Part shown: positions 7,136 to 25,748 of the stretch, piece by piece
Position numbering within the stretch: the first letter of the stretch is position 1
How the letters are laid out: every line of letters starts with the position of its first letter
Source of the DNA: Rhodococcus sp. ABRD24
Lineage (GTDB): Bacteria; Actinomycetota; Actinomycetes; Mycobacteriales; Mycobacteriaceae
Length of the DNA: 64,000 nucleotides
Direction of reading: 5' to 3'
NCBI RefSeq assembly: GCF_004328705.1
Contig: NZ_CP035319.1
Coordinates: forward strand, 4,650,001 to 4,714,000
Notes under the pieces: generated by a model
The model's input: only the letters and a program-made list of their open reading frames with translations
The model's database searches: none
Told to the model about the DNA's origin: nothing
Program-made: the position numbers and the translations under genes

Positions 7136-7657
7136 TCACGGGGCGCGCTTGCCCCTCCGTGACCGTGAGTCGATCCCTGCCTTGACCGAATCTCGGTTCA
7201 GGCGTACCCGAAGTCCGTCGAGGCCGACTTCGGCACCCGATTCGCTCACCAACTGGACGCGGACCGGCGCCCCAGTAGCTTCCTCGACGATGCGTAGCGG
7301 GCCACCGTCATCGTGCAAGTACTTGTCACCCCACTGCATCAAGGCGATCACCGCGGGAAGTAGATCACGACCCATTTCAGTCAGCACATACTCGTACCGG
7401 GTGCGTTGCCCTGGTACGCGGTACGGACTCTTGGTCAGCAGTCCTGCCTGCACCAGGTCCTTGAGACGCGCCGAGGCGACGGCGTCGGTTATGCCGACCC
7501 GATGCGCGAAATCGTCGAATCGCGTAGTGCCGTAGTAGGCCTCACGCAACAGAAGAATCGCCGAACGTGTACCGACGACCTCCATGGCGCGGCCGATCGA
7601 ACAGTGGTCGCCAGTTTCCCAAGCTTCGCGGTCCGATAGCGCCCCTTCCAATTTCAT
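7136..7657 (-). CDS. HxlR-family transcriptional regulator
   Basis: Winged-helix HxlR regulator of about 173 residues. The characteristic N-terminal cysteine and helix are visible in HCSIGRAMEVVGTRSAILLLREA, then FDDFAHRVGITDAVASARL and the wing segment RYEYVLTEMGRDLLP. ATG at 7655-7657 is preferred because AGGA sits six bases upstream; an ATG two codons earlier overlaps that site. It diverges from the MFS transporter 60 bp away and probably represses it, a common arrangement for this family. The signal it senses is unknown. Confidence 0.88.
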   Translation of the reverse strand: MKLEGALSDREAWETGDHCSIGRAMEVVGTRSAILLLREAYYGTTRFDDFAHRVGITDAVASARLKDLVQAGLLTKSPYRVPGQRTRYEYVLTEMGRDLLPAVIALMQWGDKYLHDDGGPLRIVEEATGAPVRVQLVSESGAEVGLDGLRVRLNRDSVKAGIDSRSRRGKRAP

Positions 7658-7680
7658 CACCATTCCTACAGCCTACTGAC

Positions 7681-7709
7681 TTGCCAACAGTGAAGCCAGC
7701 CCCTAACGT
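7681..7709 (+). promoter_or_regulatory. Promoter of the MFS transporter, leaderless
   Basis: -35 TTGCCA (7681-7686), 17-bp spacer, -10 TAACGT (7704-7709). The ATG begins seven bases after the -10 box, so transcription probably starts at or next to the initiation codon, consistent with the lack of a Shine-Dalgarno. A small inverted repeat ACTG/CAGT (7675-7678, 7688-7691) overlaps the -35 and could take part in repressor binding, but it is too short to weigh heavily. Confidence 0.55.
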
Positions 7710-7716
7710 GCTGAAT

Positions 7717-9180
7717 ATGGTCATTAATAGTCAGAGTGATGTCACGCCCAGACGGCCACCTTCTGCGGCGGCCACGCTCACAATCCTCTGTGGCGCACCG
7801 TTTCTCGCGAGCCTCGACCTGTTCGTCGTAAATGTCGCTTTCGATCAGATCGGCACGAGCTTTCCGGGCCACTCACTCGCCGACATGAGCTGGGTACTCA
7901 GCGGCTACGCCATCGTCTATGCAGCCCTGTTGATCCCGCTCGGTCGGTGGGCGGACAATGTCGGACACAAGCGAGTGTTCCTGATGGGTCTGGCGGTGTT
8001 CACCGTCGCGAGCGCTGCCGCCGCGGTCAGCCCTGGGCTGTGGGCGCTCGTGGGCTTCCGCCTCCTACAGGCAGTCGGAGCCGCAGCTCTTACCCCCACA
8101 AGTCTGGGTTTGCTGCTCAACTCCGTGCCATTGGAGAAGCGCGCAATCTCCGTTCGAATCTGGGCCGCGGTCAGCGGTGCCGCCGCTGCCGCATTCGGTC
8201 CGGTTGTCGGCGGATTGCTCGTCGAGGTGAGCTGGCGGTGGATCTTCTTGATCAACATCCCTTTCGGTATCGTTCTTCTCATCGCCGGGACGCGTGTTCT
8301 CGCCGAATGCCGAACCCTGCGGGCGGATTCGAAACTCGATCTGTTCGGCGCAGTGTTGCTCGCGGTCGGCATCGGCGCACTGACCACCGCGATTGTGCAG
8401 GGCCACGACTGGGGGTGGACCAGCTCCGGCGTGATCGCAGCCTTCGTCGTCGCGGTGGTTGCTTCGATCGGATTCCTCCTCAACAACTCTCGCAGGCGAT
8501 CGCCGCTGGTAGATCCGAGCCTGTTCAGGTTGAGGACCTTCACCTGGTCGAACATTGGTGCACTGGTGTTCAGCGCGAGCTTTGCCGCAGGACTCCTCGG
8601 CCTGGTTCTCTGGCTGCAAACAGTGTGGGATTACTCCGCAGTGAGGACCGGACTCGCGATCACCCCAGGACCGATCATGGTGCCGATCTTCGCGATGGTC
8701 GGACAGGCCCTAACCAAGCGCTTCAAGGCCTCCACGCTCGCTTTCGCGGGCAGCGTGCTCTGGGCAGCCGGGACAGTACTGATCCTGCTGTCCGTCGATT
8801 CCCAGCCGGACTATGTCACAGCGGTGCTCCCAGGATGGCTCCTCAGCGGTATCGGCGTCGGCCTGACCTTGCCGACCATCCTGTCGTCCGCTACCGCGCA
8901 GCTGCCGCCTACCAGCGCTGCAACCGGTAGTGCAGTGGTGAACATGACGCGCCAGATCGGCACCGTTCTCGGTATCAGCGGACTCATCGCCCTCATCGGC
9001 AGTCCGATCGGCTTCGACGCGGCGCACGAGGCCTTTCAGCGAGCCTGGTGGGCAGTCGCAGCGACAGGACTGCTGAGCGCCGTCGTCGCTTTCGGGCTGA
9101 CCCCTCGCAGTTCCGTCGCCCCATCTCCCGTTCCCGGATCGACCGAAGCAGAGAACACCCCCTCGGTGACAACCAACTGA
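7717..9180 (+). CDS. MFS drug-resistance-type exporter (DHA2-like, 14 TM)
   Basis: Major-facilitator transporter of 487 residues in the inner membrane, about 14 hydrophobic segments, typical of the DHA2/EmrB drug:proton antiporters. Motif A appears as PLGRWADNVGHKRVF after the second helix, and motif C-like glycine/proline-rich sequence as GAAAAAFGPVVGGLL. The ATG at 7717 is chosen for its position just after a promoter. The regulator of the neighbouring divergent gene is HxlR-type. A thiolase follows 61 bp downstream. Export of a hydrophobic metabolite or toxin is likely; a link to the polyyne-like cluster 5 kb away is only positional. Confidence 0.88.
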   Translation: MVINSQSDVTPRRPPSAAATLTILCGAPFLASLDLFVVNVAFDQIGTSFPGHSLADMSWVLSGYAIVYAALLIPLGRWADNVGHKRVFLMGLAVFTVASAAAAVSPGLWALVGFRLLQAVGAAALTPTSLGLLLNSVPLEKRAISVRIWAAVSGAAAAAFGPVVGGLLVEVSWRWIFLINIPFGIVLLIAGTRVLAECRTLRADSKLDLFGAVLLAVGIGALTTAIVQGHDWGWTSSGVIAAFVVAVVASIGFLLNNSRRRSPLVDPSLFRLRTFTWSNIGALVFSASFAAGLLGLVLWLQTVWDYSAVRTGLAITPGPIMVPIFAMVGQALTKRFKASTLAFAGSVLWAAGTVLILLSVDSQPDYVTAVLPGWLLSGIGVGLTLPTILSSATAQLPPTSAATGSAVVNMTRQIGTVLGISGLIALIGSPIGFDAAHEAFQRAWWAVAATGLLSAVVAFGLTPRSSVAPSPVPGSTEAENTPSVTTN

Positions 9181-10411: not shown

Positions 10412-10424
10412 CTCACTCGGCGAT

Positions 10425-10468: not shown

Positions 10469-10538
10469 CTTCACCCGGCTCGGCGAGGGTGCCCGTGCGG
10501 CAGGACCGGCAGCGCGCGTCCATACGATGAGGCTGCTG

Positions 10539-11693
10539 TCAGAGCCGTTCGACGATGAGAACGTTGGCTGTTCCGCCGCCCTCACACATTGTCTGCAGCC
10601 CGTAGCGTGCGCCTCGGCGTTCGAGTTCGTGGAGCAGCGTGGTGAAGAGCTTGGCACCGGTCGCGCCGAGAGGGTGGCCGAGCGCTATGCCGCCGCCATT
10701 GACATTCACCTTCGACGGGTCTGCACCCGTTTCGGCCAGCCACGCCATCGCAACACTCGCGAAGGCTTCGTTGACCTCGAACAGATCAATGTCCTCGATT
10801 GTCAGGCCAGTCTTCGTCAAAGCATGTTGTGTCGCGGCAATCGGGCCCGTGAGCATCCAGATGGGATCGTCCGCGCGTACCGAGATGTGGCGGATCGTGG
10901 CTCGCGGCCGTAGGTCGTGGGCTTCGACGAACCGCTCTGATGCGAGAATGACCGCACTTGCCCCATCGCCGTTCTGGCTGGCGAGCGCCGCGGTGATCTT
11001 CGAGCCTTCGCTGAGCGCGGGCAGTTTCGCCATCTTCTCGAGGGTGGTTCCTCGCCGCGGGCATTCGTCGCGCTCGAGGCCGTGTAGTGGTGTGATTTCG
11101 TCGTCGAATCTCCCGGAATCGATTGCTTCAATAGCCTTTTCGTTGCTGGCGAGGGCGTATTGCTCCATCTCGCTGCGGGATTGCGACCATTTGTCGGCGA
11201 TCATGTCGGCGCTGCGGAACTGTGAGACGTCGGCGTGACCGTACCGAGTTCGCCATCCTCGAGAACCCGAGAATGGGTCGCTGTGGCCGTACTGCCGGCC
11301 GGCGAGCATTGCCGAGCTCATCGGTATCTGGCTCATGTTCTGCACGCCAGCGGCCACAAGGAGGTCAGCAGTTTCGGACATCACCCCTTGCACCGCGAAG
11401 TGGATGGCCTGCTGACTCGAACCGCACTGACGGTCAACGGTGACACCAGGGACGTGATCGGGCAGTCCCGCTGCGAGCCAGCTGGTTCGACCGATGTTTC
11501 CCGATTGGGGTCCTAGAGTGTCGCAACAACCCATGATGACGTCTTCGACGAGTGCTGGATCGACGTCAGCCCGCGTGAGGACGGCCTTCAGGACGTGTGC
11601 TCCGAGATCTGCGGCATGCACATCGCTGAGCGATCCGCCGCGTCGGCCAACGGGGGTCCGTACCGCGTCGAGCACGTATGCGCTGGAGGTCAT
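10539..11693 (-). CDS. Thiolase (acetyl-CoA acyltransferase, FadA-type)
   Basis: Second thiolase, 384 residues. The active-site cysteine is Cys90 in DRQCGSSQQA; GHPLGATG carries the catalytic histidine (about 340) and MCEGGG the second cysteine (about 370). ATG at 11691-11693 has GGAG six bases upstream. It reads toward the thiolase at 9242 and away from the broken HxlR gene, with which it shares a 171-bp divergent region. It is complete and probably active in beta-oxidation or ketoacyl-CoA cleavage; the substrate is unknown. Confidence 0.9.
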   Translation of the reverse strand: MTSSAYVLDAVRTPVGRRGGSLSDVHAADLGAHVLKAVLTRADVDPALVEDVIMGCCDTLGPQSGNIGRTSWLAAGLPDHVPGVTVDRQCGSSQQAIHFAVQGVMSETADLLVAAGVQNMSQIPMSSAMLAGRQYGHSDPFSGSRGWRTRYGHADVSQFRSADMIADKWSQSRSEMEQYALASNEKAIEAIDSGRFDDEITPLHGLERDECPRRGTTLEKMAKLPALSEGSKITAALASQNGDGASAVILASERFVEAHDLRPRATIRHISVRADDPIWMLTGPIAATQHALTKTGLTIEDIDLFEVNEAFASVAMAWLAETGADPSKVNVNGGGIALGHPLGATGAKLFTTLLHELERRGARYGLQTMCEGGGTANVLIVERL

Positions 11694-12395: not shown

Positions 12396-12476
12396 ACTCA
12401 CCGTCGCCATGTGCGTTCGAATCCTTCGAATTACTTTGCAGTGCAGGCAATTCTCGGAGGATGGTTGCCAGGGGAG

Positions 12477-12490
12477 TCGAACATGTTCTA
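12477..12490. promoter_or_regulatory. KstR-like palindromic operator upstream of the FadA5-like thiolase
   Basis: TCGAACATGTTCTA fits the published mycobacterial KstR consensus TnnAACnnGTTnnA at every fixed position, with a perfect GAACATGTTC core. It lies 77 bp before the start of a thiolase resembling the KstR-controlled FadA5. A second palindrome, TTCGC-TTAC-GCGAA, follows at 12493-12506. An eight-base consensus is expected about once in 64 kb by chance, so position is the main support. Confidence 0.5.
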
Positions 12491-12510
12491 GTTTCGCTTA
12501 CGCGAAGTGA

Positions 12511-13731
<1,221 letters not shown>

Positions 13732-13906
13732 TCTCAACCGCTTCGCGGCGTGGGACATGAGGGGACTTCAGCTACATCCATCGCGTCATCGAGTGGCAAT
13801 AGAACTGTAACGCCAAGTTATTCGAACATTTCGCCCCAAGTTCACCCAAATCTAGCTATGCTATTGCGTAGGCAGGGAGGGATGGGGACGCTAGGGGGGG
13901 ATGTAG

Positions 13907-14686
13907 GTGGTAACTTCCATTGCCGAGTTCATGGACTCGGATATGATGTCAGATGCGCTGGATCTCAGTGCATTTCATGGTTTCAGTGGGTTGCATGGCG
14001 GGTTGTCGGCGGCCATGTTGCTGCGCGAGATGCGCCAGCACGCGCCGTCCGGCAGCAGACTCGCTCGGATGACCGCGAACTTTCTTCGGCCTGCCGACGG
14101 GCCTCTTCTCCTCAGTTCGGAGTTGGTCAAAGCGGGTTCGAAGGCCTCGATCGTGAAGGGGAGCGCGATCAGCGGGGCCGAGTTGGCGATCGAAGCGACC
14201 TCGATCTTCGTTCTTGCCAGCAGGACTGGAGCCGCGCCGCTGACACCCAGCATGCCGGACACAATCGTCGGAAGAAGCGACGCTCAACTGTTCGAGATCC
14301 CCGCGGAGTTCGTGCCGATTTCGCAGCGAATGGAGATTCGACCGGCGACGGACACGCTCCCTTACAGCGGCTCGGACACTCCGGAACTCTGCGCATGGAT
14401 CCGTCTCAAGGACTCCCTGGCGAACAACGACGAGCGGGTACTACTCCTCGCTGATGCACTGGCGCCATCGTTCTCGGCGGTGCTCTCGGAACTGAGAATG
14501 GTGCCCACCGTCGCGATGTCGGCGACGATGTCGGAGCAAGTGCCGGCCGTCGACTTCGATTGGGTGCTCGTTCGCGCCAGAACGACGATGGCGGGGCGAG
14601 ACGGCTGGGTCCGAGAGGTCATCGATGTGTGGACCGAAGACGGAGTCCACCTCATAACGAGCGACCAACTGCGCGTGGTCCGCTGA
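13907..14686 (+). CDS. Acyl-CoA thioesterase-like protein (TesB-type double hotdog)
   Basis: Protein of 259 residues with the N-terminal hotdog helix pattern GFSGLHGGLSAAMLLREMRQ and ARMTANFLRPADGPLLLSSE, and a second hotdog half ending DWVLVRARTTMAGRDGWV. This matches the TesB/4HBT_3 acyl-CoA thioesterases. Start is GTG at 13907 after a G-rich Shine-Dalgarno; an internal ATG at 13931 is the alternative. It is the first gene of the polyyne-like cluster, 91 bp before the fatty acyl-AMP ligase. A plausible job is freeing a fatty acid from CoA for adenylation, or editing; this is inferred from context. Confidence 0.72.
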   Translation: MVTSIAEFMDSDMMSDALDLSAFHGFSGLHGGLSAAMLLREMRQHAPSGSRLARMTANFLRPADGPLLLSSELVKAGSKASIVKGSAISGAELAIEATSIFVLASRTGAAPLTPSMPDTIVGRSDAQLFEIPAEFVPISQRMEIRPATDTLPYSGSDTPELCAWIRLKDSLANNDERVLLLADALAPSFSAVLSELRMVPTVAMSATMSEQVPAVDFDWVLVRARTTMAGRDGWVREVIDVWTEDGVHLITSDQLRVVR

Positions 14687-14777
14687 CCGCGGGGAACGAA
14701 CCCCGGGAACGTTTCATCACACTCACGGCCGCTCGATGGGGCGCGGCCGATCCGACCAATGATGCAGGGGAACAGCT

Positions 14778-16478
14778 ATGTCAAAATTCGCGACGATAGT
14801 CGACGCCCTCCACGCGAGATCGCAGTCCGATGAGCTTGCGTACATCTTCCTCTCGGACGGGACCGCGGACAGCGAGACGCGCTGGACGTACCGTGAAGTC
14901 GCTTCGGTGTCCGGTGTGTTTGCCGAACGCATGAAAATGGAAGGGGTTCGTGCCGGCGATCGCGTTGTGCTGGCTCTGAATCCAAGCTTGGATTACATCG
15001 CTGCGCTGTACGCGATCATGCAGATCGGAGCGGTGGCCGTCCCCTCGTTCCCGCCCATCAGGCCGAAGGAGCTCGACAGGTTCGTACTCTCAGCCCTGGA
15101 CTCCCGGCCCGCCGCAGTCATCATCGATGCGATGTATCGCGAACCGATGGGTAGCGTCAGCAAGCGCCTGGCGGAGCGGGGTATCGATGCCAAGGTGATC
15201 CAGCCGGGCATGGAGGGGACCTCCTCATCATCGGTCATCGATGGTAACGAGCACCGGCCGCGTCCCGACGCTCTGGCGTTGATTCAGTACACGTCGGGGT
15301 CGACCGGGTCTCCCAAGGGCGTCTGCGTGACACATGCGAACTTGGTCAGCAATTGCGAATCCCTCGGGCGCAGTATGGGATTCGACCCGAACCGGATCGG
15401 CCTGTCCTGGCTTCCGCCCTATCACGACATGGGATTGATGGGCACGATCATCTTGTCCGCCTATCACGGATGGCCGCTCGTGATGATGTCACCCGTTCAC
15501 TTCATCCAAGAGCCGTATCGGTGGCTTCGGGCGATCAGCGACTATGGGGTAACCATCACCGTCGGCCCCAACTTCTCCCTCGACCTGTGCACGTCCTCGA
15601 TCGATGATGCCGAACTGTCTGGACTCGAACTCGGCAGCCTCCGTGAGTTCTACTGCGGCGCAGAGCCGATCCGGCATGCGACGTTGACGGCGTTCGAGGA
15701 CAAGTTCGGAGTATGCGGCTTCGATGCTGCCTCGTTCATTCCCTGCTACGGAATGGCCGAGGCGACTCTCTTCGTCGCGGGAAAGCCCGCCGGTACCCGC
15801 TACCAGGTCATGTCCAAGCCGGGGATCACGGGCGATACCACCCACGTCAGCTGCGGTGTTGTCGACAGCGATCACATCGTCAGGATCGTCGACCCCGACT
15901 CGGGTAGCGTTGTCGCGCCCGGCGAGATCGGCGAAATCTGGGTTGCCGGTCCCAACGTTACCGAGGGCTACCTCGGGATGGGCGAACTGACGTCGACGGT
16001 CTTCCACGCGCATGTCGCCGACGACGGCCAGCAGTATCTGCGGACGGGGGACCTCGGCTTCACGCTCGATAGCGAGCTCTACGTCACTGGTCGCATCAAG
16101 GATGTGATCATCGTCAACGCCCGCAACATCTACCCCCAAGATGTCGAGTCGAATCTGCTGCGCGGTGTCCCGGAAGTGCGGCATGTAGCTGCGGTCTCGG
16201 TACCCGGGCATGACACCGAAGGACTCGGTGTCATCGTCGAGTCGCGGCTTCGCGAGATGACCGCCGAGTTGCATGCGGAGACCATCGAACGGGTCCGTGC
16301 GTCGGTCATCGCGGAACTCGGTATCGCGCCGAAGGTCATTCACGTCGGTCCACGGGGGACGGTACCGACGACGACCAGCGGCAAGGTCCGGCGCCAGCAG
16401 GCCAAGGCCCTGCTGTTGAGCGGTGAGCTGCCGACGTACGAGCTTGCGGCGTCACCTGTGCTCGAGGTGGCGCAGTGA
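14778..16478 (+). CDS. Fatty acyl-AMP ligase (FAAL)
   Basis: Adenylating enzyme of 566 residues that would activate a fatty acid as acyl-AMP and pass it to an acyl carrier protein. The phosphate-binding loop YTSGSTGSPKG is at residues 171-181, the FAAL-typical SWLPPYHDMGLMG at 210-222, then YGMAEATLF, the hinge RTGDLGF, and the C-terminal lysine in TTSGKVRRQ. The HDMGL signature favours FAAL over acyl-CoA ligase. AGGGGA lies seven bases before ATG. It overlaps the first desaturase by 4 bp. FAAL next to desaturases and a free ACP is the hallmark of polyyne and terminal-alkyne pathways (CayA, JamA type). Confidence 0.92.
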   Translation: MSKFATIVDALHARSQSDELAYIFLSDGTADSETRWTYREVASVSGVFAERMKMEGVRAGDRVVLALNPSLDYIAALYAIMQIGAVAVPSFPPIRPKELDRFVLSALDSRPAAVIIDAMYREPMGSVSKRLAERGIDAKVIQPGMEGTSSSSVIDGNEHRPRPDALALIQYTSGSTGSPKGVCVTHANLVSNCESLGRSMGFDPNRIGLSWLPPYHDMGLMGTIILSAYHGWPLVMMSPVHFIQEPYRWLRAISDYGVTITVGPNFSLDLCTSSIDDAELSGLELGSLREFYCGAEPIRHATLTAFEDKFGVCGFDAASFIPCYGMAEATLFVAGKPAGTRYQVMSKPGITGDTTHVSCGVVDSDHIVRIVDPDSGSVVAPGEIGEIWVAGPNVTEGYLGMGELTSTVFHAHVADDGQQYLRTGDLGFTLDSELYVTGRIKDVIIVNARNIYPQDVESNLLRGVPEVRHVAAVSVPGHDTEGLGVIVESRLREMTAELHAETIERVRASVIAELGIAPKVIHVGPRGTVPTTTSGKVRRQQAKALLLSGELPTYELAASPVLEVAQ

Positions 16479-17365
16479 CGGCCGGCGCCGATACGGCGAC
16501 ACGTGATGCCCTCGCATCACGTCTGGCATTCGCGACGGTCGGACTACCGACCGTCGGGACTGTCGCGGCAGTTGTCTATTCGGCCTTCTACGGAATCACT
16601 GTCACCGATATCGCCCTGTTCCTGGTGATGTACCTGACCACGGCACTCGGCGTCGAAGCCGGCTTGCACCGGTACTTCACGCATCGGTCCTTCACCGCCA
16701 CCGAACCGGTGAAGGTCTTCCTCGGAGTCGCTGGATCGATGGCGGCACAGGGGCCGATCGTGTTCTGGGTCGCGAACCACCGACTCCATCACGCTTACGC
16801 AGACACCGAGCGGGATCCGCATTCACCGAGACCTCTCGGCCCAGGGCTCCGAGGGCGCATCAAGGGTCTGTGGCACGGGCACATGGGGTGGCTGTTCGAA
16901 GTCAAGACGACCGACTGGAGCCGGCACTGCCGCGATTGGCTCAGCGACCGACGGGTCATGAAGATCAACCAGCACTACTTCACACTCGTACTCCTCGGCA
17001 TCCTGCTTCCGGGGCTCGTCGGGTGGTTGGTCACCATGAGCGTGCACGGGCTCATCGGTGGCGTCCTATGGGGCGGATTCGCACGGATCTTCGCTCTCGA
17101 TCACGCGACATGGGCCGTCAACTCGATCGGGCACACCTGGGGAGCCCGTGAGTTCAACACCCGCGACGGGAGCCGCAACATCGGTCTGCTTGCACCGCCG
17201 ACGGTCGGCGGGTCCTGGCACAACAATCACCACGCCCGACCGGTGCTCGCGCTCACGAGACGGCACTGGTGGCAACTCGATATCGCTGGTGACTTCATCC
17301 GGATCCTCAGTCGTCTCCGGCTGGTCAGTAACGTCAAATATGTCGACACATCGACACGTCGATAG
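16475..17365 (+). CDS. Membrane fatty acid desaturase/acetylenase 1
   Basis: Integral membrane di-iron desaturase of 296 residues, related to acyl-CoA delta-9 desaturases. Three histidine boxes are intact: HRYFTH (65-70), HRLHH (102-106) and HNNHH (249-253); the conserved NSIGHTWG lies near 216. Hydrophobic segments near 20-60 and 170-205 would place the boxes at the cytoplasmic face. GTG start overlaps the FAAL stop by 4 bp, so the two are translationally coupled. In the caryoynencin cluster the corresponding gene is cayB. It probably acts on the ACP-bound chain to form a double or triple bond; position is unknown. Confidence 0.9.
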   Translation: MTAGADTATRDALASRLAFATVGLPTVGTVAAVVYSAFYGITVTDIALFLVMYLTTALGVEAGLHRYFTHRSFTATEPVKVFLGVAGSMAAQGPIVFWVANHRLHHAYADTERDPHSPRPLGPGLRGRIKGLWHGHMGWLFEVKTTDWSRHCRDWLSDRRVMKINQHYFTLVLLGILLPGLVGWLVTMSVHGLIGGVLWGGFARIFALDHATWAVNSIGHTWGAREFNTRDGSRNIGLLAPPTVGGSWHNNHHARPVLALTRRHWWQLDIAGDFIRILSRLRLVSNVKYVDTSTRR

Positions 17366-17373
17366 GGGGCAAC

Positions 17374-18360
17374 ATGACTGAAACAGTAGGAGATTCGTCA
17401 GTATCGGTCGACAAGCGCGAGTCGGTTGCACGCGCGATCGTCCAACTCAATCCGCAGAGCGCACGGGCCAAGCGAATCGTTGCTGCCGTGACGATCGGTA
17501 TCCCCGGGGTCGGCTTCGTCGTGGCCTGCTATCTGGTGCTCACGGGCCGGGCGACCGGGCTGGACTACATCCTGTTCGCAGTGTTCTACGCAATCCAGAT
17601 GTTCGGAATCACAATCGGATTCCATCGCTATGCCGCGCACAAGTCGTTCAAGACCTCTCGTACGTTCGAGGGGATCTTGATGATCGCGGGATCGATGGCA
17701 ATGGAAGGCCCCCTGCTGTTCTGGGTCATCACCCATCGCCGACACCATCGATTCGCCGACGAACTGGGAGACCCGCACTCTCCGAATCTCAGTGGATCAG
17801 GTCTGGGTGGGAAGCTCAGAGGCCTGTGGTATGCCCACATCCCGTGGATGTTCAGCACCCAGGAATCGCGGGTCGACGTCTTCGCTCCGGATATCCTCCG
17901 CGATCGCCGCCTGTTCTTCTACAACCGCACCTACTTCCTGTGGGCATTGATCGGCCTCGTTCTGCCGGCGCTCGCTGGTCTCCTGATCGGCGGCACGTGG
18001 TCGGCGGCATTCTCCGGGTTCATCTTCGGTGGACTTGCTCGAGTGTTCCTTGCGAACCAAGCCGCGTGGTGTGTGGGGTCGGTCAGTCACATGATCGGTT
18101 CCCGGCCCTTCGTTACCAAGGACGACAGCGCCAACAACTGGCCCGTAGCGATAGCCACCTTCGGTGAGGGACTGCAGAACAATCATCACGCGTTCCCAGG
18201 GGCATACAAGCATGGAATGCGCTGGTGGGAACCGGATTTGAGTGGACGCGTACTCACTGTCCTGGGGAAGATGCGGATCGTCTGGGACCTACGAATGCCC
18301 GACCGCAACGCCATCAACGATCGTCTGCGGCGCAACTCTGCAACTGCTCTCTCGAATTAG
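17374..18360 (+). CDS. Membrane fatty acid desaturase/acetylenase 2, altered third His box
   Basis: Second di-iron desaturase, 328 residues, with a longer hydrophilic N-terminus. Boxes are HRYAAH (84-89), HRRHH (121-125) and QNNHH (268-272). The first histidine of the third box is replaced by glutamine (Gln268), unlike its neighbour. The same exchange occurs in front-end desaturases, so activity is not excluded. It begins 8 bp after desaturase 1. The pair are related but clearly diverged, as expected if each introduces a different unsaturation. It corresponds in position to cayC. Confidence 0.88.
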   Translation: MTETVGDSSVSVDKRESVARAIVQLNPQSARAKRIVAAVTIGIPGVGFVVACYLVLTGRATGLDYILFAVFYAIQMFGITIGFHRYAAHKSFKTSRTFEGILMIAGSMAMEGPLLFWVITHRRHHRFADELGDPHSPNLSGSGLGGKLRGLWYAHIPWMFSTQESRVDVFAPDILRDRRLFFYNRTYFLWALIGLVLPALAGLLIGGTWSAAFSGFIFGGLARVFLANQAAWCVGSVSHMIGSRPFVTKDDSANNWPVAIATFGEGLQNNHHAFPGAYKHGMRWWEPDLSGRVLTVLGKMRIVWDLRMPDRNAINDRLRRNSATALSN

Positions 18361-18371
18361 ACGGAAGGCAC

Positions 18372-18662
18372 ATGATGTTCAAGCGAAATCGTACGTCGAC
18401 AGTATCCGGGCCCCTTACGCGCGACGCGTTGGAAGGGTGGCTCGTCGCCGAACTGGCGCGGCGCACGCAAAGTGCCGAGTCCAGCATCGACACCAACAAG
18501 CCGTTCGAGGCCTACGGTCTCGATTCGCGCGCAGCGGTACAAGTTTCCGGACAGCTGGAGAAGGTCGTCGAGCGCCGACTGTCCCCTGGAATCCTGTTCG
18601 AGCACAAGACGATCAGCGATCTGACCGACTACTTGACCCGTGAGCTGCGCATCAGTTCGTGA
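18372..18662 (+). CDS. Free-standing acyl carrier protein
   Basis: Small carrier protein of 96 residues. The phosphopantetheine attachment serine lies in AYGLDSRAAV (about residue 55), followed by a helix with LEKVVERRLSPGILFEHKTI, the usual ACP helix II-III pattern. GGAAGG precedes two adjacent ATG codons (18372, 18375); either may start translation. It lies between the second and third desaturases, exactly as in polyyne clusters (cayD), and should hold the chain during desaturation. It needs a Sfp-type transferase; the PptT at 58179-58847 is a candidate. Confidence 0.9.
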   Translation: MMFKRNRTSTVSGPLTRDALEGWLVAELARRTQSAESSIDTNKPFEAYGLDSRAAVQVSGQLEKVVERRLSPGILFEHKTISDLTDYLTRELRISS

Positions 18663-18689
18663 GGTCTACTGATCCGGGAGGGAATTCTC

Positions 18690-19775
18690 ATGACCCACGT
18701 GATACCAACAGATCCTGATCCGCGCTTTCGTGAGTTCATGGCGAAGAGCGATGCAATCAGCGGTGAGAAGCTGACGGCAGCCATCCCGCGTGAGCTGATG
18801 GAGCCTTCGCTGGCCCGCGGAATGATGGGATTCGCCCTCAGTTGGGCCTTGTACATCGGCTCCATCGTGGGCATGGCAGTCTTCCACCACTGGTACGTCT
18901 ATCCGTTCCTGCTGGTGACGGCTGGACTGGGCGGCTGGGGGTTGCATTGCATTGCCCACGATTGCGGACACGGTTCGTTCTCGCGGAATCGGAAGCTCAA
19001 CTTCTTCATCGGACATCTGTCGTTGATGCCTCTGCTCTACCCATTCCACGCGTGGCGACACGTGCACAACCTCCATCACGGCCACACGAACAGCCTCGAA
19101 CTCGACACGGACTGGAGGCCCATTTCTGAGGACATCTACCGGCGAATGCCGCTCCGTGACCGGGTCGTGTACATCAGCACGAGGACCTGGGCGGCCTGGG
19201 CCGGCACCATCAACTACTGGGTCGTCTCGGGATTCCGCCCTTCGTACTTCCCGAAGAAGGACATGCGCCGCGATGTCCGGCGCTCGATCATCTTCGTGAT
19301 CATCATCGGTGGTGCCTACCTTGCGACGTTGACCTATTTCACGGGGTGGCAGGGTCTTCTGCTGTACTTCGTGGCACCGTGGTTCGCGATTCACGCCTGG
19401 TTCAGCATCACGACGCTGATGCACCACAGTGCCGAGGACATTCCCTATCTGCCGGAGCGCTACTGGACCCGAAATGCCAGCCGACTGCTCGTGACCACCG
19501 ATTTCCGGTACCCGCGGTGGCTGTTGTTTGTCACTCACAACATCTCGATTCACACTGCACACCATGTCGCTCCGGTTGTCCCGTTCTACAACCTGCCGAA
19601 GGCCCAGGCTGCACTGAAACAGACCTATCCGGGAATGGTCCGCGAGGAGCCTGCCAGCCTTCGCCGGGTGTGGACCGTCCTGCGTAAATGTCGCTTCTAC
19701 GACCCCGTCTCGGGACTGTACTCGACGACGCCGATGGCGAAGATCGGCGACGCTGACATGAAGGAGTCAGCGTGA
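18690..19775 (+). CDS. Membrane fatty acid desaturase/acetylenase 3 (FAD2-like)
   Basis: Third desaturase, 361 residues, of a different branch: the delta-12/omega-3-like family. Boxes are HDCGH (90-94), HNLHH (126-130) and HTAHH (288-292), with an extra MHHS near 244. Hydrophobic stretches at about 44-85 and 200-240 cross the membrane. FAD2-like enzymes include known acetylenases, so this is a good candidate for triple-bond formation. It corresponds in position to cayE. The hydrolase gene overlaps its stop by 4 bp. Confidence 0.9.
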   Translation: MTHVIPTDPDPRFREFMAKSDAISGEKLTAAIPRELMEPSLARGMMGFALSWALYIGSIVGMAVFHHWYVYPFLLVTAGLGGWGLHCIAHDCGHGSFSRNRKLNFFIGHLSLMPLLYPFHAWRHVHNLHHGHTNSLELDTDWRPISEDIYRRMPLRDRVVYISTRTWAAWAGTINYWVVSGFRPSYFPKKDMRRDVRRSIIFVIIIGGAYLATLTYFTGWQGLLLYFVAPWFAIHAWFSITTLMHHSAEDIPYLPERYWTRNASRLLVTTDFRYPRWLLFVTHNISIHTAHHVAPVVPFYNLPKAQAALKQTYPGMVREEPASLRRVWTVLRKCRFYDPVSGLYSTTPMAKIGDADMKESA

Positions 19776-20611
19776 TCGCTCACCCTGTCCTCAGCGACAC
19801 CCTTGCCAAGAACTACCGGTGGATGCCCCGGATTGCCGGATATTACTTCACGTCGATTTACAGCACGACTCGCAGGCTGGGTACCTTCCCCGATGATGTG
19901 TGCCCGATCGGGGCGCGCCGCGTGCCGTTGGCCGACGTCCACAGAGTCAAAGCGGCCTATGTGTGGGGTGACGCCGATCCGACTGTGTTGGTTCTGCACG
20001 GGTGGGGTACCGACAGCACAAGCATGATGGGAATCGTCGAGACCGCTGCGGCGCTTGGGGAATCGGTCGTCTGCTTCGATGCCCCTGGCCACGGCGTGTC
20101 TCCGGGGGGCCAGGCGACGATGTCCGAGTATGCGATGGCAACCGTGGAAGTTCTCCGGCGGTTTCCGACGATCCGCACTGTCGTCTGCCACTCGCTGGGC
20201 TGTATTGCTGCGGTTTCCGCTATCGCAACCGTCGGCGTCGTGAGGTCGCTGATCATGCTTGCCCCCGCATGCACCTTGGCAGGAACACTCGAACGGTGGG
20301 CCGACGAGCGAAACCTGCCGAATGGCCTGGTCGCGGAGATGTACCGTGAGCTACAGAGACGGAACGGTGTCCCGGTATCCCACTGGGACATCCGGACGCT
20401 CGGCCTGCCGCAGGACCTCGAGGCCGTAGTCCTGCGTGACCCGGACGATGACTGGATTCCGGCTAGCGACGCGCAGCAGATCCTCGAGGCATACCCGCAG
20501 ATCCCGCTTCGCGATGTCGCCGGCACTGGCCACCACGGCATTCTCCGAAGTCCGCTGGTCAAAGCAGCGCTCGCCTCAGCAGTAGGGCACCGTGAGGGGG
20601 ATCGCCTGTGA
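19772..20611 (+). CDS. Alpha/beta hydrolase, probable chain-releasing thioesterase
   Basis: Alpha/beta-hydrolase of 279 residues. The oxyanion segment [13 protein letters not shown], nucleophile elbow [13 protein letters not shown] (Ser in a CxSxG rather than GxSxG context), acid region [11 protein letters not shown] and histidine segment [11 protein letters not shown] form a complete triad. GTG start overlaps the desaturase stop by 4 bp. Its place after desaturase 3 matches CayF, the thioesterase that frees the finished polyyne from ACP. It could equally act on another ester; the assignment comes mainly from context. Confidence 0.82.
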
Positions 20612-20802
20612 GAGTTCGAGCTAAGGAACGCAGGGATACGAAGGCGTGGCTGTGCCTGGTGTGCGGGTGGGTCTACTACGAGGAACTCGGATCTCCCGAG
20701 GACGGAATCGAACCGGGTACACGCTGGGAAGACATTCCCGACGACTGGATCTGCCCAGACTGCGGCGCACGTAAAGAGGACTTCGTGATGACCGAATTGT
20801 GA
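20608..20802 (+). CDS. Rubredoxin
   Basis: Small iron protein of 64 residues with the two metal loops [18 protein letters not shown] and [11 protein letters not shown], supplying four cysteine ligands. Start GTG overlaps the hydrolase stop by 4 bp. Rubredoxins pass electrons to membrane di-iron oxygenases such as alkane hydroxylases, and occur in several bacterial polyyne clusters. Here it probably feeds the three desaturases. No rubredoxin reductase is seen in the window. Confidence 0.95.
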
Positions 20803-20847
20803 TTCTCACCAGACTTTTTCAAATCGATAGGCGGCAGAGGAGACCAG

Positions 20848-22083
20848 ATGAGTACCACATCGACAGTGCGAAGCCCGCTCGAGATCATGGCGGAATTGCT
20901 GTCTTTCGACGGGAAACAGAATCCGTACCCCCTTTACGAACAGATGCGGGCGCACGGCCCGGTTGTTGACGTTCAGGGTGCTCACTTCTTCGTCACCGGC
21001 TATCGTGAATGCTCCTGGGCGCTAAGGGAGCCCGAGCTTCTAGCCTCGACGGATGACGCGGTCCAGGATCGGCGGCTACCAGGTTGGAGAGACCACTCCT
21101 CGTGGGTATGGCTGACGAAGAACATGCTGTTCAGCAACAACCCACGACATGAGCGATTGCGCCGGTTCTTCGGCAACGCGTTCTCGGCCCAGAGGGTTCT
21201 TGCCCTCGCAGACATGATCGACCGGCTCTCCGACGACGTCGTGGACCATCTGGCGCGTGAAGGCGCGGATGGCCGGACTGTCGATCTCGTCGAGCACTTC
21301 TCCTACCGTTTCGCGATCTCGGTCATCGGTGAACTCATCGGTGTGCCTTCGGAAGATCAGCCGGGGATGCGACATGGAATCGGTGCCATCACGATCGCAC
21401 TCGACCCCATCACCGACATGTCGATGCTCGATCCGGGTGATGTTGCCATGGATCGGTTCGCCGAGTACTTCTACGGGTTGGTCGCTCGTTTGCGGGCGAA
21501 TCCAGGAACCGACATGACGAGCGGGTGGATCAAAGCGCTCGACAACGGCGGTGACATCACTGAGGAAGAGCTCGTCGCCAATCTGATGCTGCTGGTCGTC
21601 GCAGCTACGGAAGCCCCGCAGGATCTGTTGAGCAATACCATCCGGCTTGCGATCGAGCATCCGGAGTTCCACGATCGGATCAAGACGGATCCGGATTTCA
21701 CCGCAGGGTTCATCGAGGAGTCCTTCCGGTTCGATCCAGCAGTGCAGGCACTGAATCGGGTTGCTACCCGAGACTTCGACTTCTTCGGCCACCCGGTTGC
21801 AGCGGGTACTCCTCTCACCTTGCTGATCGCTGCCGCCAACCGGGACCCACGCCGGTACGACAACCCCGCCTCGTTCGTACCCACACGAACCGAGAACCAA
21901 CCACTGACGCTCAGCGGTGGGAGTCACTACTGCCTCGGCGCAGCACTGGCGCGGATGTCGGTTCAGGCAGTCCTGCCGAAATTGATCACTCGATTCCCCG
22001 ACCTGACGATTGCCGGGGCGCCCACCTTCCGAAACCAGATCGTCCAACGTGGCCACGCCACCCTTCTCATCACGCTGAAGTAA
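20848..22083 (+). CDS. Cytochrome P450 with atypical oxygen-activation helix
   Basis: P450 of 411 residues. ExxR is ESFR (291-294) and the haem ligand is Cys362 in LSGGSHYCLG, with the usual leading phenylalanine replaced by leucine. The I-helix reads VAATEAPQ (251-258): the acid Glu255 is kept but the following threonine is Ala256 and then Pro257, and the usual AG is AA. Loss of this threonine alters proton delivery and is seen in some P450s with unusual chemistry. It lies 45 bp after rubredoxin. In caryoynencin the P450 CayG hydroxylates the chain; this enzyme is probably a tailoring counterpart. Confidence 0.88.
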   Translation: MSTTSTVRSPLEIMAELLSFDGKQNPYPLYEQMRAHGPVVDVQGAHFFVTGYRECSWALREPELLASTDDAVQDRRLPGWRDHSSWVWLTKNMLFSNNPRHERLRRFFGNAFSAQRVLALADMIDRLSDDVVDHLAREGADGRTVDLVEHFSYRFAISVIGELIGVPSEDQPGMRHGIGAITIALDPITDMSMLDPGDVAMDRFAEYFYGLVARLRANPGTDMTSGWIKALDNGGDITEEELVANLMLLVVAATEAPQDLLSNTIRLAIEHPEFHDRIKTDPDFTAGFIEESFRFDPAVQALNRVATRDFDFFGHPVAAGTPLTLLIAAANRDPRRYDNPASFVPTRTENQPLTLSGGSHYCLGAALARMSVQAVLPKLITRFPDLTIAGAPTFRNQIVQRGHATLLITLK

Positions 22084-22093
22084 GGGGCCGAAC

Positions 22094-22984
22094 ATGCTAC
22101 CGACCGTTGCCATGACCGATGCCGACCTCGCTGCATCCCTCGGCGACTTCACCAGTGAGTACGCGGAGGTGAACGGTATCCGTTTGCACTACGTCACCGG
22201 CGGGTCCGGCACGCCGCTGATCCTCCTGCCCGGATGGCCGGAGACGTGGTGGGAATACCGGAAGCTGATGCCGGCTCTGGCGACCGAACATCGCGTCTTC
22301 GCGGTCGATATCCGAGGCATGGGCAGCTCGGACAAACCGGATTCCGGGTACTCGAAGAAGTCGATGGCGAACGACATCAAGGAGCTCGTCCACGCCCTGG
22401 GGTACGAGAGGGCGAACCTTGCCGGCCACGGCATCGGGGCGATGGTCGCGTTCGCTTGCGCGGCGAATCATCCGGAGGTGGTCGAGAAGGTTGCGATCCT
22501 CAACACCACACACATCGACAACAGCTATTACGAGTTCCCCATGGTTCCCCGTCCCGGCGATGCGCCACCTCACCGCTGGTGGCTTGCGTTCAATCAGGTC
22601 CGCGAACTGCCTGAGCAACTGCTGGCCGGCCGAGCTCGACATCTGGTCGACTACATGTTCGGCATCAGCCTCGTCAATCCCGATGCCATCTCCGAGTTCG
22701 ACCGTGAGGTGTACGCCCAGGCGTACAACGCGCCCGGCGCGATTCGTGCAGCGACGGGGTGGTTCCAGACGTATCAGCAGGACATCGACGACTTCAACTC
22801 CTACGACCCCGTCTCCGTGCCGATGCTGGGACTGGCGTACGGCGGATTCTTCGACTACATGGCGAAGGCGCTGCCCAGGCAAGGGGTCGACGTGCGTGTC
22901 GAACAGATCTCCGACAGCCGCAACTATCTCGTCGAAGAGCAGCCCGCCGCGGTCGTGTCCGCCTTCGCCGCATTCTTCTCCTGA
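22094..22984 (+). CDS. Alpha/beta-hydrolase-fold protein lacking catalytic residues
   Basis: Protein of 296 residues aligned by eye with epoxide hydrolases and haloalkane dehalogenases (GSGTPLILLPGWPETWWEYRK in two parts, then VDIRGMGSSDKP). At the nucleophile elbow GHGIG (111-115) glycine 113 replaces the catalytic aspartate or serine. Near the end SRNYLVEEQP has Asn277 where the catalytic histidine stands, and the oxyanion HGxP is PGWP. The fold is kept while at least two of three catalytic residues are gone, so it is unlikely to be a normal hydrolase. It may bind a substrate, act as a lyase or isomerase, or support its neighbours. It starts 10 bp after the P450. Confidence 0.8.
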   Translation: MLPTVAMTDADLAASLGDFTSEYAEVNGIRLHYVTGGSGTPLILLPGWPETWWEYRKLMPALATEHRVFAVDIRGMGSSDKPDSGYSKKSMANDIKELVHALGYERANLAGHGIGAMVAFACAANHPEVVEKVAILNTTHIDNSYYEFPMVPRPGDAPPHRWWLAFNQVRELPEQLLAGRARHLVDYMFGISLVNPDAISEFDREVYAQAYNAPGAIRAATGWFQTYQQDIDDFNSYDPVSVPMLGLAYGGFFDYMAKALPRQGVDVRVEQISDSRNYLVEEQPAAVVSAFAAFFS

Positions 22985-23014
22985 CCCGAGCCACACACCG
23001 CGAAAGGCACTGCG

Positions 23015-24025
23015 ATGAAACGTTCACCACTTGCCGACGTTGCATGGAACTACATGTCGGCACAGATTCTGAACGATGCGGCCGAACTCGAGATTGCCGA
23101 CAGACTCGCCCACGGTGCACAGTCGAGTATCGAGCTGGCTGCTGCGACCGGGACTCATGCGCCGTCGCTGCGCCGTCTGCTGCGGGCTCTCACCGCCCTC
23201 GGGGTCCTCGAGCAGTGCGACGCGGACCGATTCGCACTGACCGACCTCGGCGCACAACTTCGCAAGGATGCGCCCGATACTGTCCGCGACGTAGTCCGGT
23301 TCCTCTGCTCCGAGGGTGCGTGGAGCTCGTGGGGGGACTCGCTCCACAGCCTCCGCACGGGGGAGACAGCCTTCGAGCACAACTACGGGATGCAGGCGTT
23401 CGAGTACCTCGGTCAGCATCCCGAGGAGGCCGCGAAACTCAACGGTGCAATGGGTCGTATGACGGGTGAGACCGCCGCTGGAATCATTGCCGGATATGAC
23501 TTCTCGCAATTCTCGACGATCGTCGATGTCGGCGGCGGCAACGGAACGTTCCTCGCCGAAATCCTGCGTTCAGCAAAGGACAGCAAGGGCATCGTGTTCG
23601 ACATGCCGACAGGGGTGACCGACGCGGCTGCCACGCTGGGAGCAGCTGGCGTGGCCGATCGAGCCGACGTCGTCGACGGGAGCTTCTTCGCGTCGGTCCC
23701 CAGTGGCGCCGATGCCTACGTGCTCAAGCTGGTCCTCCATGACTGGGACGATGACCGGTGCCTGCGGATTCTCGAGAACGTTCGTCAGGCCATCGCCCCC
23801 GAGGGCCGTCTGTTGGTCTTCGAGCGGGCTGTCCCTGAGGTCGTCACCGCCGAGCATCGCCGAGCGCTGCTAGCGGATCTTCTGATGCTCGTCCTCACCG
23901 GCGGTAAGGAACGCACAGTGACCGAGTACCGCGCGTTGTTCGAGTCGGCGGGCTTCACCCTCGACACGGCTACCGGCCCTCTGGGGGACCTGGGTTTCAC
24001 GCGATTGGAAGCGACTCCCGCGTAG
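23015..24025 (+). CDS. SAM-dependent O-methyltransferase
   Basis: Small-molecule O-methyltransferase of 336 residues, related to polyketide and plant-type OMTs. An N-terminal dimerisation/winged-helix domain (LAAATGTHAPSLRRLLRAL) precedes the SAM-binding motif VDVGGGNG (170-177); the catalytic histidine is in LHDWDD (242-246). It starts 30 bp after the degenerate hydrolase and ends at a hairpin, making it the last gene of the cluster. It would methylate a hydroxyl or carboxyl group of the product, perhaps one installed by the P450. The core caryoynencin set lacks it. Confidence 0.9.
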   Translation: MKRSPLADVAWNYMSAQILNDAAELEIADRLAHGAQSSIELAAATGTHAPSLRRLLRALTALGVLEQCDADRFALTDLGAQLRKDAPDTVRDVVRFLCSEGAWSSWGDSLHSLRTGETAFEHNYGMQAFEYLGQHPEEAAKLNGAMGRMTGETAAGIIAGYDFSQFSTIVDVGGGNGTFLAEILRSAKDSKGIVFDMPTGVTDAAATLGAAGVADRADVVDGSFFASVPSGADAYVLKLVLHDWDDDRCLRILENVRQAIAPEGRLLVFERAVPEVVTAEHRRALLADLLMLVLTGGKERTVTEYRALFESAGFTLDTATGPLGDLGFTRLEATPA

Positions 24026-24630: not shown

Positions 24631-24751
24631 GCGGTACGGGCTCGCGCGGCAGTCGGAAGGTGTCGAATCGAGTACTGACGACCACGCGCAAGCTCCGAAC
24701 GACCGTCCGGCATCGGGCGGCCAGGCTCGCGTGGAGAGGAGCACGGACGCA

Positions 24752-25135
24752 ATGAACGTCTACGTGCCGATTCTCGTGCTGGGCGCTATCGCAGTCGCAT
24801 TTGCGGTCTTCTCCGTGATTGTCGCGTCCGTCGTTGGTCCCAGACGGTACAACCGCGCCAAGCTCGAAGCGTACGAGTGCGGCATCGAGCCGACTCCGCA
24901 GGCGCTGGGCGGCAGCGGTATCCGCGGCGCGATCGGGCAGCGAATCCCGGTGAAGTACTACCTGACGGCGATGCTGTTCATCATCTTCGATATCGAGATC
25001 GTCTTTCTCTACCCGTGGGCCGTCCATTTCGACGTGCTCGGACTCTTCGGCCTCGCCGCGATGGCCGTCTTCATCTTCAACGTCTCCGTCGCCTATGTGT
25101 ACGAGTGGCGGCGGGGCGGTCTCAGTTGGGATTAG
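24752..25135 (+). CDS. nuoA: NADH-quinone oxidoreductase subunit A
   Basis: Membrane subunit of complex I, 127 residues with three hydrophobic segments. The conserved loop [11 protein letters not shown] carries the switching cysteine, and FLYPWAV is typical of NuoA. The ATG at 24752 fits the family N-terminus better than an in-frame start seven codons upstream that overlaps the GAGAGGAG Shine-Dalgarno. It is the first gene of the nuoA-N operon. NuoA helps form the quinone-chamber roof at the junction with NuoH and NuoJ. Confidence 0.95.
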
Positions 25136-25160
25136 GCACCTAGTCGGAAGCGAGTCGATC

Positions 25161-25748
25161 ATGGGTCTCGAAGAGAAGCTGCCGAGTGGATTTCTGCTGA
25201 CCACGGTCGAGGGCCTGGCCGGATACGCCCGCAAGGGTTCACTGTGGCCTGCCACCTTCGGACTCGCCTGTTGCGCAATCGAAATGATGGCGACCACGTC
25301 CGGGCGCTTCGATATTGCGCGCTTCGGGATGGAGGCGTTTCGTGCGTCGCCGCGACAGGCCGACCTGATGATCGTGGCCGGCCGGGTGAGCCAAAAGATG
25401 GCGCCGGTACTGCGCCAGGTCTACGACCAGATGGTGGAGCCGAAATGGGTGCTGGCAATGGGGGTGTGCGCATCGTCCGGCGGGATGTTCAACAATTACG
25501 CGATCGTTCAGGGCGTCGACCATGTAGTGCCCGTCGACATCTACCTGCCGGGGTGCCCACCGCGGCCGGAAATGTTGATCAACGCGATTCTGATGTTGCA
25601 CCAGAAGATTCAGGACATGCCTCTCGGTGTCAACCGTGAGGAGGCGGTGCGGGCCGCGGAGCAGGCCGCGCTCTCGTCGCCCACCACGCTCGAACTCGGA
25701 TTGGCTGCCCGCGCCGCCGGCTCTGCTTCCGGGGGGATGTCGAAGTGA
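25161..25748 (+). CDS. nuoB: NADH-quinone oxidoreductase subunit B
   Basis: Peripheral-arm subunit, 195 residues, that carries the terminal [4Fe-4S] cluster N2 donating to quinone. Cysteine ligands are visible in [17 protein letters not shown] and PGCPPRPE. The ATG at 25161 matches the family start [13 protein letters not shown]; the frame is open further upstream only by overlap with nuoA. Stop overlaps the nuoC start by 4 bp. It has the Ala-rich C-terminal tail usual in actinobacteria. Confidence 0.96.

What the first reader, a model, noticed from the sequence alone, without database searches (positions are those of the whole stretch)
13907..24025. Polyyne-type biosynthetic cluster in an actinobacterium, with extra genes
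FAAL, desaturase, desaturase, ACP, desaturase, hydrolase, rubredoxin and P450 follow each other on one strand, several overlapping by 4 bp. Apart from the rubredoxin this is the order of the caryoynencin genes cayA-G. The known polyyne clusters I can name are mostly proteobacterial. This one adds a TesB-type thioesterase, a degenerate hydrolase and an O-methyltransferase, so the product may be methylated and new. A terminal alkyne, polyene or conjugated acetylenic acid are all possible.
Basis: partly seen in the sequence, partly recalled or inferred. Interest (0 to 1): 0.88.

Follow-up and report, generated by a model that had tools for sequence, protein, structure and literature searches.

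The report
Actinobacterial polyyne cluster with dead hydrolase
An actinobacterium carries a set of genes that very probably makes a chain of carbon-carbon triple bonds (a polyyne, a kind of antibiotic), and beside the known machinery sit three spare thiolases that may shield the cell and a conserved hydrolase-like protein whose active site has been rebuilt so that it cannot hydrolyse in the usual way.

Summary
In detail: genes at 13907-24025 form the bacterial polyyne core (FAAL, two desaturases, ACP, desaturase, thioesterase/hydrolase, rubredoxin) plus TesB, P450, a hydrolase-like protein (Hyd2) and an O-methyltransferase. The reading needs four changes. (1) Actinobacterial polyyne clusters, Rhodococcus included, were catalogued in 2021. 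(2) Rubredoxin is core and TesB recurs in actinobacterial clusters; neither is an extra. (3) The unit starts about 6 kb earlier, with an MFS exporter and three thiolases. Massilia polyynes alkylate a thiolase, proposed as that producer's self-resistance, so these are probably self-protection; thiolases also flank 4 of 6 Streptomyces clusters of this subtype. (4) Hyd2 is the surprise: in its clade the epoxide-hydrolase nucleophile Asp is Gly and the catalytic His is Asn in 44 of 44 proteins; both are intact in 76 of 76 nearest relatives. It stands beside the P450 here and in 6 of 9 Streptomyces genomes that carry it; in 3 of 9 no core gene is near. The core resembles Mycobacterium/Nocardia clusters, the P450-Hyd2-OMT end S. 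ureilyticus: probably a mosaic. Product, Hyd2 function and resistance are untested.

The parts
7567..9180 (+). MFS transporter, likely exporter (start uncertain)
   Evidence: PF07690 1e-36; 45-48% identical MFS in the 6 Streptomyces clusters of the subtype and in L006, L014
9242..10411 (+). thiolase Thi1
   Evidence: PF00108/PF02803; 59-65% to cluster thiolases of 4 Streptomyces loci; catalytic Cys/His/Cys kept; best solved match FadA5
10539..11693 (-). thiolase Thi2
   Evidence: 64% to two thiolases elsewhere in the same genome
11880..12400 (+). HxlR-type regulator split over two reading frames (bounds approximate)
   Evidence: HxlR match only to profile 32-87 in one frame; what looks like the preceding part is in another frame
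12568..13731 (+). thiolase Thi3
   Evidence: 71% to two near-identical thiolases elsewhere in the genome; best solved match FadA5 1e-154; start chosen by eye
13907..14686 (+). TesB-type acyl-CoA thioesterase
   Evidence: PF20789, PF13622; near the core in 11 of 16 other loci
14778..16478 (+). fatty acyl-AMP ligase (FAAL)
   Evidence: PF00501; FAAL models lead the NCBIfam list after one NRPS/PKS model, all below cut-off; solved matches include FadD23 and 3pbk FAALs, the top one is filed as polyketide synthase
16475..17365 (+). desaturase DesB
   Evidence: PF00487; three His boxes; 72-77% to Mycobacterium-genus clusters
17374..18360 (+). desaturase DesC; third box QNNHH in this and 15 of 15 relatives
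   Evidence: PF00487
18372..18662 (+). acyl carrier protein
   Evidence: PF00550; GLDS serine; start chosen by eye
18690..19775 (+). desaturase DesE (polyyne-type)
   Evidence: PF00487; 55% to B. gladioli, 57-78% to other relatives compared
19772..20611 (+). a/b hydrolase / thioesterase of the core (HydF), Ser-Asp-His kept
   Evidence: PF12697
20608..20802 (+). rubredoxin
   Evidence: PF00301 8.8e-22; CxxC x2
20848..22083 (+). cytochrome P450; I-helix Thr replaced (EAP), as in most relatives
   Evidence: PF00067; 73% to S. ureilyticus
22094..22984 (+). Hyd2, epoxide-hydrolase-like protein with Asp nucleophile -> Gly113 and catalytic His -> Asn277
   Evidence: model pLDDT 94, TM 0.96 to Alp1U
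23015..24025 (+). O-methyltransferase, SAM motif kept
   Evidence: PF00891 1.3e-49; among the loci examined a relative only in S. ureilyticus, there matching in three frames

Best explanation
A complete actinobacterial polyyne biosynthesis unit (7567-24025). By the published logic of such clusters, FAAL loads a fatty acid on the ACP, three membrane desaturases fed by rubredoxin turn it into a conjugated (poly)alkyne, and the HydF thioesterase releases it (inferred from homology; 0.85). The P450 then oxidises the chain, and Hyd2, whose gene is next to the P450 in 7 of 7 polyyne clusters that have it, acts on the oxidised product without the usual covalent Asp intermediate, e.g. as a ring-opening or cyclising catalyst (0.4), or binds and shelters it (0.3). 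The O-methyltransferase adds a methyl group (0.6). The MFS protein exports the product, and the three thiolases are spare, sacrificial or tolerant copies of enzymes that polyynes alkylate at the catalytic Cys, so the producer survives (0.65).
For: Core content and order equal the published polyyne core FAAL-2xFAD-ACP-FAD-H/TE-Rd (window) and that of Streptomyces plasmids. Catalytic motifs intact. S. ureilyticus has the same set, P450, Hyd2, OMT and thiolase included. Hyd2: G113 in 44 of 44 (window included) against D in 76 of 76 outgroup; N277 in 44 of 44 against H in 76 of 76; nine more switched positions, which speaks for selection. Window and 6 of 9 Streptomyces genomes have Hyd2 right after the P450 and near the core. 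Thiolases: within the sequence held, in 5 of 7 P450-Hyd2 clusters (window included) against 0 of 10 other polyyne loci (Fisher p 0.003, relatedness ignored). No other beta-oxidation gene among the ORFs scanned from MFS to OMT. Thi2 and Thi3 look like diverged second copies of thiolases elsewhere in the genome. Four Streptomyces clusters also hold an ACAT-like copy; the one searched matches MasL (7ei3, 3e-91), though other biosynthetic thiolases score higher. Published: polyynes alkylate MasL Cys90, and MasL or ERG10 overexpression rescues a sensitive yeast (passages). GC3 is 0.71-0.82 from MFS to OMT against 0.84-0.85 in three genes upstream.
Against: No product, expression or mutant is known. 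3 of 9 Streptomyces genomes with Hyd2 have no core gene within the 40 kb fetched, so the link is not strict. Two of the 6 linked Streptomyces clusters show no thiolase in the 40 kb fetched. Thi1 and Thi3 are FadA5-like, not MasL-like. In the passages seen, protection by MasL was shown by overexpression in a heterologous host, and masL insertion did not affect biosynthesis. OMT is in 2 of 7 such clusters and looks broken in the other one. An acyl-CoA dehydrogenase-like gene lies at 5090-6952, outside the GC3 drop. GC3 of nuoA-C (0.78-0.84) overlaps that of the cluster.
Confidence: 0.72

Rival explanations
1. The thiolases are biosynthetic: they shorten the acyl chain after desaturation (beta-oxidation) to set the product length.
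For: Thi1 and Thi3 are nearest to FadA5-type thiolases among solved structures; TesB, an acyl-CoA thioesterase, is at hand; an acyl-CoA dehydrogenase-like gene lies at 5090-6952.
Against: No hydratase or hydroxyacyl-CoA dehydrogenase among the ORFs scanned in 7567-24025; three paralogues from three subfamilies are more than one shortening step needs; four Streptomyces clusters pair a Thi1-like with an ACAT-like copy.
Confidence: 0.2
2. The cluster makes a terminal alkyne or conjugated polyene/enyne rather than a true polyyne.
For: The number of triple bonds cannot be read from sequence; related clusters differ (tetrayne, triyne, diynyl allene; passage).
Against: In the 2021 survey the two extra desaturases, thioesterase and rubredoxin are what sets polyyne clusters apart from jamABC alkyne cassettes; all are present here.
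Confidence: 0.15
3. Hyd2 is a decaying leftover of an epoxide hydrolase without function.
For: Both catalytic residues are gone.
Against: The same replacements in 44 of 44 protein clusters of 62% identity or more; 79% identity to S. ureilyticus, above every core gene of that pair (45-72%); open frames; confident fold.
Confidence: 0.07
4. The three thiolases are ordinary catabolic genes that happen to neighbour the cluster.
For: The genome holds 42 PF00108 matches, 24 of them of 50 bits or more, so some adjacency is expected; Thi2 points the other way.
Against: Three in 4.5 kb inside the low-GC3 unit; Thi1 relatives flank 4 of 6 Streptomyces clusters.
Confidence: 0.15

Closest known systems
Bacterial polyyne clusters (caryoynencin cay, cepacin ccn, collimonin col, massilin mas, protegencin pgn, ergoyne)
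   Same: FAAL-2 desaturases-ACP-desaturase-H/TE-rubredoxin in this order (window; text)
   Different: Actinobacterial host; TesB, Hyd2, O-methyltransferase and three thiolases, of which two tested are FadA5-like. The genes of the named clusters were not themselves compared, only the papers' descriptions
Streptomyces ureilyticus YC419 polyyne-type locus (L005 / G1581)
   Same: Same order FAAL to OMT; P450 73%, Hyd2 79%, OMT 62-74% in pieces, Thi1-like thiolase 65%, TesB, MFS
   Different: Core 45-65% identical except rubredoxin 72%; thiolase, TesB and MFS lie downstream; OMT matches in three frames; second thiolase ACAT-like and upstream
Mycobacterium-genus polyyne-type loci (L024-L028)
   Same: DesB 72-77%, DesC 74-80%, DesE 68-74%, FAAL 54-57%
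   Different: No rubredoxin, cluster-type P450, Hyd2, OMT or thiolase found by tblastn; in 4 of 5 a second FAAL follows the hydrolase
MasL, polyyne self-resistance thiolase of Massilia sp. YMA4 (PDB 7EI3)
   Same: Thiolase inside a polyyne cluster, catalytic Cys/His/Cys kept
   Different: MasL is a biosynthetic thiolase; Thi1 and Thi3 are nearest FadA5; Thi2 not searched
Alp1U, epoxide hydrolase of kinamycin biosynthesis (PDB 6KXR, 6KXH, 7CLZ)
   Same: Fold (TM 0.96, 1.0 A, 50% identity); Trp162, Trp163, Tyr211 invariant in 45 of 45 aligned (Alp1U itself not in that alignment)
   Different: Asp nucleophile and His replaced by Gly and Asn

Membership tests
Bacterial polyyne biosynthesis cluster | FAAL + desaturase + ACP cassette (jamABC) | tested here: met
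   FAAL by best relatives, all NCBIfam models below cut-off
Bacterial polyyne biosynthesis cluster | Two further desaturases, H/TE and rubredoxin | tested here: met
Bacterial polyyne biosynthesis cluster | Order FAAL-2xFAD-ACP-FAD-H/TE-Rd | tested here: met
   window; definition
Bacterial polyyne biosynthesis cluster | DesE in the polyyne desaturase clade | tested here: inconclusive
   Groups with actinobacterial and Burkholderia relatives, but no ordinary desaturase was in the tree
Bacterial polyyne biosynthesis cluster | Acetylenic product depends on the genes | not testable with these tools
   needs culture or expression
a/b-fold epoxide hydrolase (Hyd2) | Fold with cap domain | tested here: met
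a/b-fold epoxide hydrolase (Hyd2) | Asp nucleophile | tested here: not met
   Gly113; 44 of 44 clade members Gly, 76 of 76 outgroup Asp
a/b-fold epoxide hydrolase (Hyd2) | Catalytic His | tested here: not met
   Asn277; 44 of 44 Asn, 76 of 76 outgroup His
MasL-type polyyne resistance thiolase | Encoded in the polyyne cluster | tested here: met
MasL-type polyyne resistance thiolase | Type II biosynthetic thiolase close to MasL | tested here: not met
   Thi1 and Thi3 best match FadA5; Thi2 not searched; a Streptomyces ACAT-like copy matches 7ei3 among others
MasL-type polyyne resistance thiolase | Reactive Cys, His, Cys | tested here: met
   3 of 3 window thiolases
MasL-type polyyne resistance thiolase | Protects against the product | not testable with these tools
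   needs enzyme assay

The most novel reading that the evidence does not exclude
Hyd2 founds a new kind of a/b-hydrolase-fold protein that works with the adjacent P450: with Gly for the nucleophile and Arg-Asn for Gly-His it keeps the epoxide-binding cap but opens or cyclises (or shelters) an oxidised polyyne without a covalent enzyme ester, giving an unseen actinobacterial polyyne scaffold; and the producer survives by keeping spare copies of several thiolase subfamilies, which would make several thiolases, not only ERG10/ACAT, polyyne targets.
Probability: 0.35. Interest if true: 0.78.

Novelty: new variant of a known kind. Interest (0 to 1): 0.6.

Why it matters
As of the 2021 survey no actinobacterial polyyne had been tied to its genes (passage). 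This cluster comes with a conserved, active-site-rebuilt hydrolase that predicts an unknown tailoring step, and with thiolase copies that make the bacterial target of polyynes, which a 2025 paper leaves open (passage), directly testable in vitro.

Tried and rejected
Rejected: TesB and rubredoxin as unusual additions. Rejected: Hyd2 as a lone pseudogene. Rejected: Hyd2 strictly tied to polyyne cores (3 of 9 unlinked; among the neighbours scanned there are SpoIIE-type regulators, permeases and metallopeptidases).

Mosaic claim, result against it: a tree of the five core proteins on the same seven taxa as the P450-Hyd2 tree also joins the window with S. ureilyticus (UFB 100 in both), so topology alone shows no conflict. 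The claim rests on reversed identities and gene order. An earlier core tree used for L030 what is evidently the DesC gene as DesB too; it was redone without L030. For G1391 only the larger of two FAAL pieces entered.

Led nowhere: promoter and terminator scan below the shuffled mean; tRNAs none; paper searches for polyyne with acetylenase and Streptomyces, and with thiolase and Streptomyces, gave none; polyyne with Rhodococcus gave 4, one relevant by the listing; polyyne with epoxide hydrolase and gene cluster gave 2, judged from the listing only.

Subsets: searches used the 120 listed of 631 Hyd2 relatives (window's own included); A1 used 45 sequences; one search used 25 DesE sequences, 22 of them from the 158 proteins listed; one search used 21 of 39 non-window PF00108 matches of the genome (weaker ones left out); one search read 13 of these on the wrong strand and was replaced. 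The contig-length matches were read by eye from the lists.
Full report
1. What is there. The eleven genes at 13907-24025 are real and intact: TesB, FAAL, desaturase B, desaturase C, ACP, desaturase E, hydrolase/thioesterase (HydF), rubredoxin, P450, a second hydrolase-like protein (Hyd2), O-methyltransferase. Downstream begins a nuo operon (nuoA-C by Pfam, 24731-26497). Upstream lie an MFS transporter, three thiolases and a split HxlR regulator. Third-position GC is 0.71-0.82 from MFS to OMT, against 0.84-0.85 in three genes further upstream and 0.78-0.84 in nuoA-C, so the unit is taken as 7567-24025.

2. Is it a polyyne cluster? The published core is FAAL-2xFAD-ACP-FAD-H/TE-Rd (PMC9098870, section 7 read, passages; PMC8406139, section 5 read, passages). 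All parts are present in that order with catalytic motifs kept. Streptomyces goshikiensis and sp. Mg1 plasmids show TesB-FAAL-des-des-ACP-des-hydrolase-rubredoxin-P450-MFS as annotated. DesE is 55% identical to B. gladioli desaturases (that these belong to the caryoynencin cluster is recalled, not tested). Actinobacterial clusters of this type, Rhodococcus included, were in the 2021 survey, where two Mycobacteriaceae lacked rubredoxin; in the five Mycobacterium-genus loci found here tblastn also finds none.

3. How rare is it? DesE at E<=1e-80 or stricter: own genome only among 14 of the genus, 1 of 401 of the family (own), 2 of 394 of the class (own and one more), 5 of 396 in the genus of G065 and 2 of 150 in the genus of G034. 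These groups overlap in part.

4. The hydrolase-like protein. Hyd2 has an a/b-hydrolase fold: the model has mean pLDDT 94 and superposes on the epoxide hydrolase Alp1U with TM 0.96, rmsd 1.0 and 50% identity (Alp1U's activity from passages of PMC9391479). Of 631 relatives found, the 120 best were aligned. They fall into 44 (62% identity or more, window's own included) with Gly at the nucleophile and Asn at the catalytic His, and 76 with Asp and His; no exception on either side. Further switched positions: Arg276, Asn137 (42 of 44), Thr138, Pro159, Leu164, Tyr227, Phe234 (43 of 44), Tyr249, Gly250. Such joint fixation speaks for a new function, not decay. Seven of the other 43 clade members have the same longest-contig length as a DesE hit or 28 (read by eye: 222141, 8612339, 657836, 11277, 39387, 3115, 17688), and one more (393948) matches G1537. 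For the remaining 35 no link was seen; many lie on contigs of a few kb, and the DesE lists were capped.

5. Linkage. In 6 of 9 Hyd2 directly follows the P450 and the core lies within about 10 kb; in 3 of 9 no core gene was found in the 40 kb fetched. In the five linked clusters other than S. ureilyticus, P450-Hyd2 lies upstream of TesB-FAAL; in the window and S. ureilyticus it follows rubredoxin and is followed by OMT.

6. Thiolases. Window Thi1-3 keep the catalytic Cys, His and Cys. Thi1 is 59-65% identical to a thiolase beside 4 of 6 Streptomyces clusters; these 4 have a second one, ACAT-like, and the one of G1391 matches MasL (7ei3) at 3e-91, with PhaA-type and other biosynthetic thiolases scoring higher. 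Among the sequences compared, Thi2 and Thi3 are nearest to other thiolases of the same genome (64% and 71%; UFB 100 each), so they look like diverged second copies; thiolases of other species were not searched. Thiolases were found in 5 of 7 clusters with P450-Hyd2 and in 0 of 10 without (L006, L014, L015, L024-L030; flanks differ, L006 and L024 being short; Fisher p 0.003, not corrected for relatedness, and L014 and L015 are near-identical). With MasL as precedent, self-protection is the best reading; chain shortening is the rival.

7. Mosaic. Window against S. ureilyticus: core FAAL 46, DesB 58, DesC 63, ACP 57, DesE 65%; P450 73, Hyd2 79%. S. ureilyticus against the other five Streptomyces of the subtype: the same core genes 54-73%, P450 69-71, Hyd2 64-68%. 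So the end of the cluster is more alike between the window and S. ureilyticus than within Streptomyces, while the core is not. The window core groups with Mycobacterium-genus and Nocardia-genus loci apart from the Streptomyces loci (UFB 100). Exchange of the P450-Hyd2-OMT piece is likely (about 0.7), with the caveat that a seven-taxon core tree has the same topology and that Thi1 follows the core pattern (window 65%, other Streptomyces 70-76%).

8. Mechanism, step by step. Shown by sequence: gene set, order, intact or lost catalytic residues, linkage. From published families: loading, desaturation, rubredoxin supply, release, thiolase alkylation by polyynes. Inferred: P450 oxidation before Hyd2, non-covalent chemistry or binding by Hyd2, methylation, export, protection.

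9. Literature limits. Actinobacterial polyyne clusters are in print; I found no paper on a Hyd2-like protein or thiolases in them, by the searches in an open-licence library only, most hits seen as listings. One wide search returned 1,644 papers of which 20 were listed.

Noticed in passing
window 11880-12400: An HxlR-type regulator between Thi2 and Thi3 appears split over two reading frames; natural lesion or sequencing error not told apart.
   Followed up: partly
L005 14368-15343: The S. ureilyticus O-methyltransferase matches in three different frames, so it looks broken there.
   Followed up: no
G1391 (L105 about 1087-2789): The FAAL of this Streptomyces cluster matches in two frames, and the TesB of G1548 in two pieces.
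   Followed up: no
window 20848-22083 and relatives: The cluster P450s lack the usual I-helix Thr: EAP in 9 of 10 compared; L030 has QSP.
   Followed up: no
window 17374-18360 and 15 relatives: DesC has QNNHH instead of HNNHH as third His box in 16 of 16 compared.
   Followed up: no
L024, L025, L026, L028: A second FAAL (33-35% to the first) follows the hydrolase in four of five Mycobacterium-genus polyyne-type loci.
   Followed up: no
L074 and L076 (own genome): Two almost identical FadA5-like thiolases at distant places of the genome.
   Followed up: no
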